NCBI GenBank assembly: GCA_016191305.1
Contig: JACPOX010000209.1
Coordinates: 1-17,376, forward strand
Reading direction: 5' to 3'
Length of the DNA stretch: 17,376 nucleotides
From: Legionella longbeachae
GTDB lineage: Bacteria > Pseudomonadota > Gammaproteobacteria > Legionellales > Legionellaceae
The notes under the pieces are model-generated. The model saw only the letters and a program-made list of their open reading frames with translations, was not told the origin of the DNA and did not search any database. Of this stretch, positions 1,316 through 3,501 are shown piece by piece. The position numbers were made by a program, and so were the translations under genes. The number at the start of each line of letters is the position of its first letter. The first letter of the stretch is position 1.

Positions 1316-3501
1316 ATGAGCGTTGACGCCAGTTACGATTCAAATAATATTAAAGTCCTAAAAGGCTTAGATGCAGTAAGAAAAAGACCAGGGATGTATA
1401 TCGGTGATACAGATGATGGTACAGGTCTTGTTTACACGGAGTAGGTGTATCTGTAGTCAATGCTCTATCTGAAGAGTTACATTTAACGGTCCGACGTCAT
1501 GGGAAAGTCCATGAACAGCACTATCGAAATGGAGTTCCTGACACAGCAATGGCAGAAACAGGTGATGCCGTCTCTACTGGTACCCAAATTTGGTTTAAAC
1601 CGAGTGCAGCAACATTCACAAATATTGAATTTCACTATGATATTTTAGCAAAACGTCTAAGAGAATTATCTTACTTAAACTCAGGTGTTTGCATTCACTT
1701 ATTTGATGAGCGCTCACAAAAACAAGATACATTTCACTATGAAGGCGGTATAAAAGCTTTCGTCGAGCATTTAAATAAAAACAAAACAGTAATTACTCCT
1801 ACTGTTTTTTCTATGATTGCTGAAAAAGACAATATCGTTGTTGAGCTTTCAATGCAGTGGAATGATTCCTATCAAGAAACACTTTATTGTTTTACCAATA
1901 ATATTCCCCAGCGTGATGGTGGAACTCATATGGCAGGATTTAGAGCCGGACTAACTAGAACTTTAAACAATTACATCGAAAGTGAAGGTTATGCCAAAAA
2001 AGCCAAAGTATCTCCAACAGGAGATGATGCGCGCGAAGGTTTAACTGCCGTACTCTCTGTAAAAGTACCTGATCCTAAATTTTCCTCACAAACAAAAGAT
2101 AAATTAGTTTCATCTGAAGTAAAATCAGTTGTTGAGTCCAGCCTTTCCGAAAAATTCAATGATTTTCTTTTAGAAAACCCCTCAATCGCAAAAGCAATTG
2201 TTGCTAAAATTATTGACGCAGCAAGAGCTCGGGAAGCAGCGCGACGTGCCCGTGAGATGACGCGACGCAAAGGGGCGTTAGATATTGCTGGATTGCCTGG
2301 AAAATTAGCAGATTGCCAGGAAAAAGACCCTGCTTTATCTGAGCTTTATTTGGTAGAGGGAGACTCAGCAGGTGGTTCAGCGAAACAGGGAAGAGATAGA
2401 AAGTTCCAGGCTATTTTGCCATTGAAAGGAAAAATATTAAACGTTGAAAAAGCGCGTTTTGACAAAATGCTTGCTTCTCAAGAGGTAGCGACACTGATTA
2501 CCGCTTTAGGTTGTGGTATAGGGCCTGATGAGTATGATCCAGATAAAGTGCGTTATCATCGAATTATCATCATGACCGATGCGGACGTAGACGGGTCTCA
2601 TATTAGAACCTTACTTCTTACTTTTTTCTACAGACAGACCCGCGAACTCTTAGAACGCGGTTATATTTATATCGCTCAACCTCCTTTGTATAAAGTAAAA
2701 CGCGGAAAACAAGAGCAATATGTAAAAGACGATGAAGCTTTGTTTGAATACTTAACTCAAAGTGCTATGGATGGAGCTGCATTTTATCCAGCCAAAGATG
2801 CTCCACCTATTACCTCAATGGCGCTAGAAGAATTAGTACATCAATTCAGACGCGTTGAGAAAATTATCAAACGCTATAAAAGAAGATACCCTACAGATAT
2901 TCTGAAACGAATCGCTTATTTACCCATATTACATAATGAGGATTTTAATCAGCAAGATAAAATAGCAAACTGGTGCAAACAACTGCATTTAAGTTTACAG
3001 CAGGTTGGAAGCAAAACTGAGCAGTATAATGTGGATGTACATACTGTTGCCGAGACAAACCAATTTATACCCAGAATTATTGTTACTCAGCATGGTATGG
3101 ATAATTATATACCAATGAACGCTGAATTTTTCTACTCTAAAGACTATAAAGAAATGGTTGGTTTGGGATCAAAATTATCTAGTTTGGTTGAAGAGGGAGC
3201 ATATATTAAGCGTGGGGATAAAGAATTAGCCATAGAAAATTTCGAACAAGCTTTAGACTGGTTAATGGACGAGGCGAAAAAAGGCCAAACCATTCAGCGT
3301 TATAAAGGTCTTGGAGAAATGAATCCCGAGCAACTTTGGGAAACAACTATGGATCCTGCGGTGCGTCGTATGCTGCAAGTGAGCATTGAGGATGGTGTAG
3401 CAGCAGATGCAATATTCACCACCTTGATGGGTGATAATGTTGAACCCAGAAGAGAATTTATCGAGTCTAACGCTTTGGATGCAGAAAATATTGATATTTA
3501 A
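1316..3501 (+). pseudogene. gyrB: DNA gyrase subunit B, internally deleted and frameshifted
   Basis: GyrB powers DNA supercoiling with GyrA. The N-terminus begins at the ATG at 1316 with a good ribosome-binding site and reads normally through KVLKGLDAVRKRPGMYIG and DTDDGTGL. It then jumps, at about 1426-1432, straight to L-HGVGVSVVNALS, and the original frame stops at 1442-1444. Some 77 codons (about 230 bp) are absent, covering the E. coli region that holds Glu42, Asn46, Asp73 and Gly77, so the ATPase site is destroyed. The rest, in the other frame to 3501, is full length and well conserved: transducer domain (LAKRLRELSYLNSGV), Toprim motifs VEGDSAGG and DADVDGSH, the gammaproteobacterial insert, and the C-terminal QRYKGLGEMNPEQLW. 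An open frame from the ATG at 1549 gives 650 aa. Normal length is about 806 aa. An essential gene should not look like this, so misassembly, a read error or a second gyrB copy must be considered. Confidence 0.9.
1424..1434 (+). other. Deletion/frameshift junction in gyrB
   Basis: The text GGTCTTGTTTA joins the codons for G-L of DDGTGL (normally followed by HHMVFEVVDNA) directly to the G-L-H of SGGLHGVG. There is at most one or two bases of shared sequence, so it is not an obvious repeat-mediated deletion. The join leaves the downstream part out of frame. Confidence 0.85.

What the first reader, a model, noticed from the sequence alone, without database searches (positions are those of the whole stretch)
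1316..1560. gyrB lacks most of its ATP-binding site and is frameshifted
The N-terminal motif DTDDGTGL is joined directly to LHGVGVSVVNALS, so about 77 codons are missing, including the positions of Glu42, Asn46, Asp73 and Gly77 in E. coli GyrB. The original frame ends at 1442-1444, yet the remaining roughly 690 codons are well conserved with no other break. gyrB is normally single-copy and essential, so either this is a recent artefact or there is another gyrB (or a substitute topoisomerase) in the genome. Conservation of the rest indicates a very recent event.
Basis: partly seen in the sequence, partly recalled or inferred. Interest (0 to 1): 0.7.

Follow-up and report, generated by a model that had tools for sequence, protein, structure and literature searches.

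The report
Broken gyrB from faulty draft assembly
A stretch of the essential gyrase gene is missing in this Legionella draft genome, but the same draft shows similar unexplained losses in other conserved genes, so it is most likely an assembly error rather than biology.

Summary
Near window 1426-1432 the first 38 codons of gyrB (ATG at 1316) run straight into codon 117 of the relatives' gene. 232 bases are missing, the first frame stops at 1442-1444, and the 689 later codons are open and conserved. HATPase_c is lost.

The window is contig C179 of a Legionella draft: 2.48 Mb, 323 contigs, 81.7% complete. The draft shows no second gyrB and no stray copy of the missing piece; the only close kin is parE. 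Of 23 same-genus relatives, 22 have a gyrB frame of at least 806 codons; the other is split over two contigs.

The context points to an artefact. Of 81 conserved genes that could be followed end to end in a sample of the draft, gyrB and four others (speA, nadB, lpd, gadC) have breaks without N runs, and three more carry short N runs. 0 of 52 genes in control Legionella sequence do (p = 0.08 without and 0.016 with the N-run genes, so suggestive).

Verdict: most likely a technical deletion, probably a false contig or gap join. Raw reads could not be seen. Low interest.

The parts
1316..1444 (+). 5' piece of gyrB: 38 homologous codons, then 4 out-of-frame codons and a TAG stop
1426..1432 (.). deletion junction; 232 bases absent relative to six aligned gyrB loci
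1432..3501 (+). 3' piece of gyrB: 689 open codons plus stop, with transducer (DNA_gyraseB), Toprim, hook, insert and C-terminal domains; the longest ORF starting with ATG begins at 1549 (650 aa)
7915..9839 (-). speA (biosynthetic arginine decarboxylase), a second broken gene in the same contig, in two frames
8233..8361 (.). 129 bases of unknown origin inside speA, in place of 103 bases in relative G019

Best explanation
The gap is a technical deletion in a fragmented Legionella draft, not a property of the organism. Shown: 232 bases are absent at one point of an otherwise normal gyrB; the piece is not found elsewhere in the draft; other conserved genes in the sampled part of the draft have similar breaks; short N runs lie inside genes. 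Inferred: two neighbouring contig ends or reads were joined falsely, by scaffolding or gap closing, so that the stretch between them was dropped. In the cell gyrB is then intact and works as ordinary gyrase. I cannot separate a false join from an amplification chimera or a collapse of mixed strains without the reads.
For: Draft of 323 contigs, 81.7% complete. 17 short N runs of 12-76 bases in 41 sampled contigs (410,684 bases, 3 of these contigs wholly N), against 0 in 20 contigs of G015, 1 in 20 stretches of G016 and 4 in 60 stretches of G019. N runs break genes with the wrong length, in putA and a SulP transporter. Breaks without N: gyrB -232, lpd -57 in frame, nadB about -138 to -162 in frame, gadC about -120 with a stop, speA a replaced stretch. 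lpd loses the second cysteine of GGVCLNVGC (motif recalled), and only a 27% identical paralogue remains beside it. Survey: 5 of 81 genes against 0 of 52 control genes, p = 0.080; with the three N-run genes 8 of 81 against 0 of 52, p = 0.016. The rest of gyrB is under strong constraint. Of the 120 listed relatives 118 carry HATPase_c; 22 of 23 same-genus genomes have a full frame and the other is split over two contigs.
Against: No reads were seen. The survey is small: without N-run genes p = 0.080, and outside the window 3 of 73 against 0 of 52 gives p = 0.196. The junction itself has no N. Two of the other breaks (lpd, nadB) are in frame. Short N runs could in principle be stretches withheld by the operators. 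The window's gyrB has more private amino acid changes (22) than the four relatives compared (5-12), though it is also the most distant of the five. An earlier, cruder count found 11 of 67 genes with some break, including ones I later judged to be end effects, and 1 of 15 in control G015.
Confidence: 0.92

Rival explanations
1. A real deletion in one cell or a minority of the sampled population, a dead-end mutant that was sequenced and assembled.
For: The rest of the gene is intact and conserved, as a very recent event requires; the junction carries no N.
Against: It would have to be coupled with independent real lesions in speA, nadB, lpd and gadC in the same draft; loss of gyrB ATPase is expected to be lethal (general knowledge).
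Confidence: 0.05
2. A true pseudogene, with a second intact gyrB or a substitute enzyme in the part of the genome that was not assembled.
For: The draft is only 81.7% complete.
Against: No second gyrB or stray missing piece in the draft; each of the 23 same-genus relatives shows one gyrB-like locus (in G014 as two contig pieces) plus parE; the remainder shows dN/dS of about 0.02-0.03.
Confidence: 0.02
3. A working shortened GyrB made from the ATG at 1549 (650 aa) that lacks the ATP-binding site and acts with GyrA as a relaxing enzyme.
For: The 650-aa frame is open and keeps the Toprim domain. A C-terminal GyrB fragment with GyrA relaxes DNA without ATP-driven supercoiling in E. coli (recalled, no call).
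Against: The frame from 1432 to 1548, upstream of that ATG, is as conserved as the rest, the normal start and first 38 codons are conserved too, and of 120 listed relatives only two (671 and 682 aa, one named partial) lack HATPase_c.
Confidence: 0.01

Closest known systems
DNA gyrase subunit B of Legionella (e.g. L. steigerwaltii, L. anisa, Legionella sp. 515359; P0001)
   Same: Place after recF, start, 38 N-terminal codons and 689 C-terminal codons; 92-95% identity over the 650-aa frame.
   Different: 232 bases with most of the ATP-binding domain are missing and the frame is shifted.
Assembly artefacts: false joins by scaffolding or gap closing
   Same: Sudden loss of a stretch in conserved genes, wrong gap lengths, N runs inside genes. 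The listed abstract of PMC10265787 says that chimeric reads cause erroneous k-mers and false read overlaps in gap closing (start of the abstract seen, paper not read).
   Different: The assembler, the library and the reads of this draft are unknown to me, so the exact step is not shown.
parE (topoisomerase IV subunit B)
   Same: The only other DNA_gyraseB locus of the draft (C147), with an intact N-terminal part and a 637-codon frame.
   Different: 35-55% identical to GyrB pieces; a separate gene, also present in relatives.

Membership tests
DNA gyrase subunit B (working gene) | HATPase_c ATP-binding domain | tested here: not met
   No HATPase_c in either piece; present in P0001
DNA gyrase subunit B (working gene) | one uninterrupted frame of about 805 codons | tested here: not met
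   Frame ends at 1442-1444; the second frame has 689 codons
DNA gyrase subunit B (working gene) | transducer, Toprim, insert and C-terminal domains | tested here: met
   PF00204, PF01751, PF18053, PF00986 all over cut-off; NF011501 over its cut-off, TIGR01059 under it, 729.7 against 882.4 bits
Assembly artefact | comparable breaks in unrelated conserved genes of the same draft, rare in other drafts | tested here: met
   5 of 81 against 0 of 52, p = 0.080; 8 of 81 with N-run genes, p = 0.016: suggestive, small sample
Assembly artefact | reads contradict the junction | not testable with these tools
   No raw reads on hand
True pseudogene | relaxed constraint in the remainder | tested here: not met
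   dN 0.040-0.050, dS 1.7-2.4 against four relatives; a very recent pseudogene would also show this
True pseudogene with backup gene | second gyrB in the genome | tested here: inconclusive
   None in the draft, but the draft is 81.7% complete

The most novel reading that the evidence does not exclude
This Legionella lineage really lives with a gyrase B subunit without its ATP site, so that supercoiling is supplied by another enzyme or gyrase works only as a relaxing or cleaving partner.
Probability: 0.01. Interest if true: 0.8.

Novelty: not a real feature. Interest (0 to 1): 0.06.

Why it matters
A missing ATP site in an essential enzyme would be remarkable if real. Here it mainly warns that gene-loss claims from this draft, and from similar fragmented drafts, need read support: other conserved genes in it (speA, nadB, lpd, gadC) look broken in the same way.

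Tried and rejected
Second gyrB or stray piece: searched by family, by the relative's N-terminal protein and by DNA; only parE and unrelated HATPase_c loci came up. Plasmid copy: the whole window against plasmid records gives one 75% identical partial match, a gyrB piece at the end of a Legionella adelaidensis plasmid record; not followed up.

Foreign stretch in speA: not found elsewhere in the draft, in the 44 other genus genomes searched or among plasmid records, and not an inverted piece of the loci on hand; origin unknown. Chimeras of whole-genome amplification, often inversions (recalled), are therefore less favoured but not excluded.

Rows dropped before the count of 5 of 81: the fabD-like gene of L112, whose 'stop' lies upstream of the real start. 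In the first count (11 of 67 in G000, 1 of 15 in G015, 0 of 24 in G016) two genes with a stop near the C-terminus (L109, L145), an SDR gene with unclear alignment (L095) and the one gene of G015 did not pass the stricter rules. One search, with still looser rules, had 15 of 67 not clean.

Rfam found no RNA family in the window. Two paper searches gave listings only; no paper was opened, and no claim about what is or is not in print rests on them.

Full report
What is there. The gene at 1316-3501 follows recF (1-786, cut by the contig start) and is gyrB. The first 38 codons match the N-terminus of relatives and the next matching residue is number 117. Against L. steigerwaltii, L. anisa, Legionella sp. 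515359 and three metagenome loci the window lacks 232 bases at one point. The first frame ends at TAG 1442-1444. The 689 codons after the junction contain no stop and carry transducer, Toprim, hook, insert and C-terminal domains, while HATPase_c is found in neither piece.

Where it is. The window is contig C179 of a genome of 2,483,502 bases in 323 contigs, 81.68% complete, 1.06% contaminated. Its closest named relatives by the 650-aa gyrB frame are Legionella species, 92-94% identical, and the genome search places it in one genus with 23 of the 38 relatives searched. The species has no name in any answer I saw.

Is there another gyrB? The family DNA_gyraseB matches twice in the draft: here and at C147. 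The C147 locus is a 637-codon frame, 35% identical to the GyrB frame, with an intact N-terminal part 55% identical to GyrB; I take it as parE. The N-terminal 160 residues of L. steigerwaltii GyrB match only parE and the two window pieces. A 421-base stretch of a relative that spans the missing part matches only the 89 bases left of the junction.

What do relatives have? Of 23 same-genus genomes, 22 have a gyrB frame of 806-827 codons; in G014 the gene is split over two contigs. Among the 120 best proteins listed (8000 were scored, a cap), 118 carry HATPase_c; P0053 and P0106, 682 and 671 aa from contigs of 3849 and 2945 bases, do not. The closest, P0001, is 805 aa and 95% identical over the 650-aa frame.

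Is the remainder decaying? In 689 codons the window differs from four relatives by dN 0.040-0.050 and dS 1.7-2.4 (saturated), with no stop. It has 22 private amino acid changes against 5-12 in the relatives, but it is also the most distant of the five. There is no sign of neutral decay. This fits an intact gene in the cell, or a very young event.

Is the draft sound? I compared ORFs of relatives with 41 contigs of the draft (410,684 bases including the window, of 323 contigs; three of the 41 read wholly N). With both gene ends aligned, 81 distinct genes could be followed. Six had a break without N; I dropped one (fabD-like, break upstream of the start), leaving five: gyrB, speA, nadB, lpd and gadC. 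Three more have N runs inside the gene: putA, a SulP transporter and one more. Control sequence from G015, G016 and loci around gyrB of other Legionella gave 0 of 19, 0 of 29 and 0 of 4. The one-sided Fisher test gives 0.080 for 5 of 81 against 0 of 52, 0.016 with the N-run genes, and 0.196 for the genes outside the window without N (3 of 73). This is suggestive, not strong, taken as a count. The kind of break adds weight. lpd loses 57 bases with the second cysteine of its redox motif (motif recalled), and the only other match in the draft is 27% identical. nadB loses about 138-162 bases. In speA 129 bases of unknown origin stand in place of 103.

N runs. The sampled draft has 17 short N runs (12-76 bases), against 0 in G015, 1 in G016 and 4 in G019 samples. 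In putA and the SulP gene the run length does not fit the missing coding length, as expected for estimated scaffold gaps. The operators also withhold some stretches as N, so a part of the runs might have that origin.

Junction. By eye, the gyrB, lpd, nadB and gadC joins share few or no bases between the two ends as judged from relatives. The draft's own lost bases are unknown, so this is an inference. It favours an abutting of contig ends or a false gap closure over recombination between repeats.

Conclusion. A technical deletion explains gyrB and the other breaks at once. A real deletion, a backup gyrB in the missing fifth of the genome, or a working short GyrB need extra assumptions and have no support beyond the incompleteness of the draft. 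Without reads the artefact is inferred, not proven; I put it at 0.92.

Noticed in passing
window 8233-8361 (speA, minus strand, 7915-9839): 129 bases without match in 44 other genus genomes, plasmid records or the rest of the draft replace 103 bases of speA and shift the frame.
   Followed up: partly
L149 (G000:C25) 2323-3687 and 7022-8479: lpd and nadB in one contig both have in-frame deletions of 57 and about 138-162 bases; the SulP gene of the same contig holds two N runs.
   Followed up: partly
window 787-1315: The recF-gyrB spacer is 529 bases long, against 206 in L003 and 177 in L115; 693-1232 did not align to L115, and Rfam finds nothing there.
   Followed up: no
H1, NZ_LR134435.1 26831-27514: A Legionella adelaidensis plasmid record ends with a stretch 75% identical to part of gyrB, with no annotated feature; possibly a mislabelled chromosome piece.
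   Followed up: no
L095 (G000:C1) 1633-2881, minus strand: A GadC-like antiporter gene lacks about 120 bases and gains a stop.
   Followed up: partly
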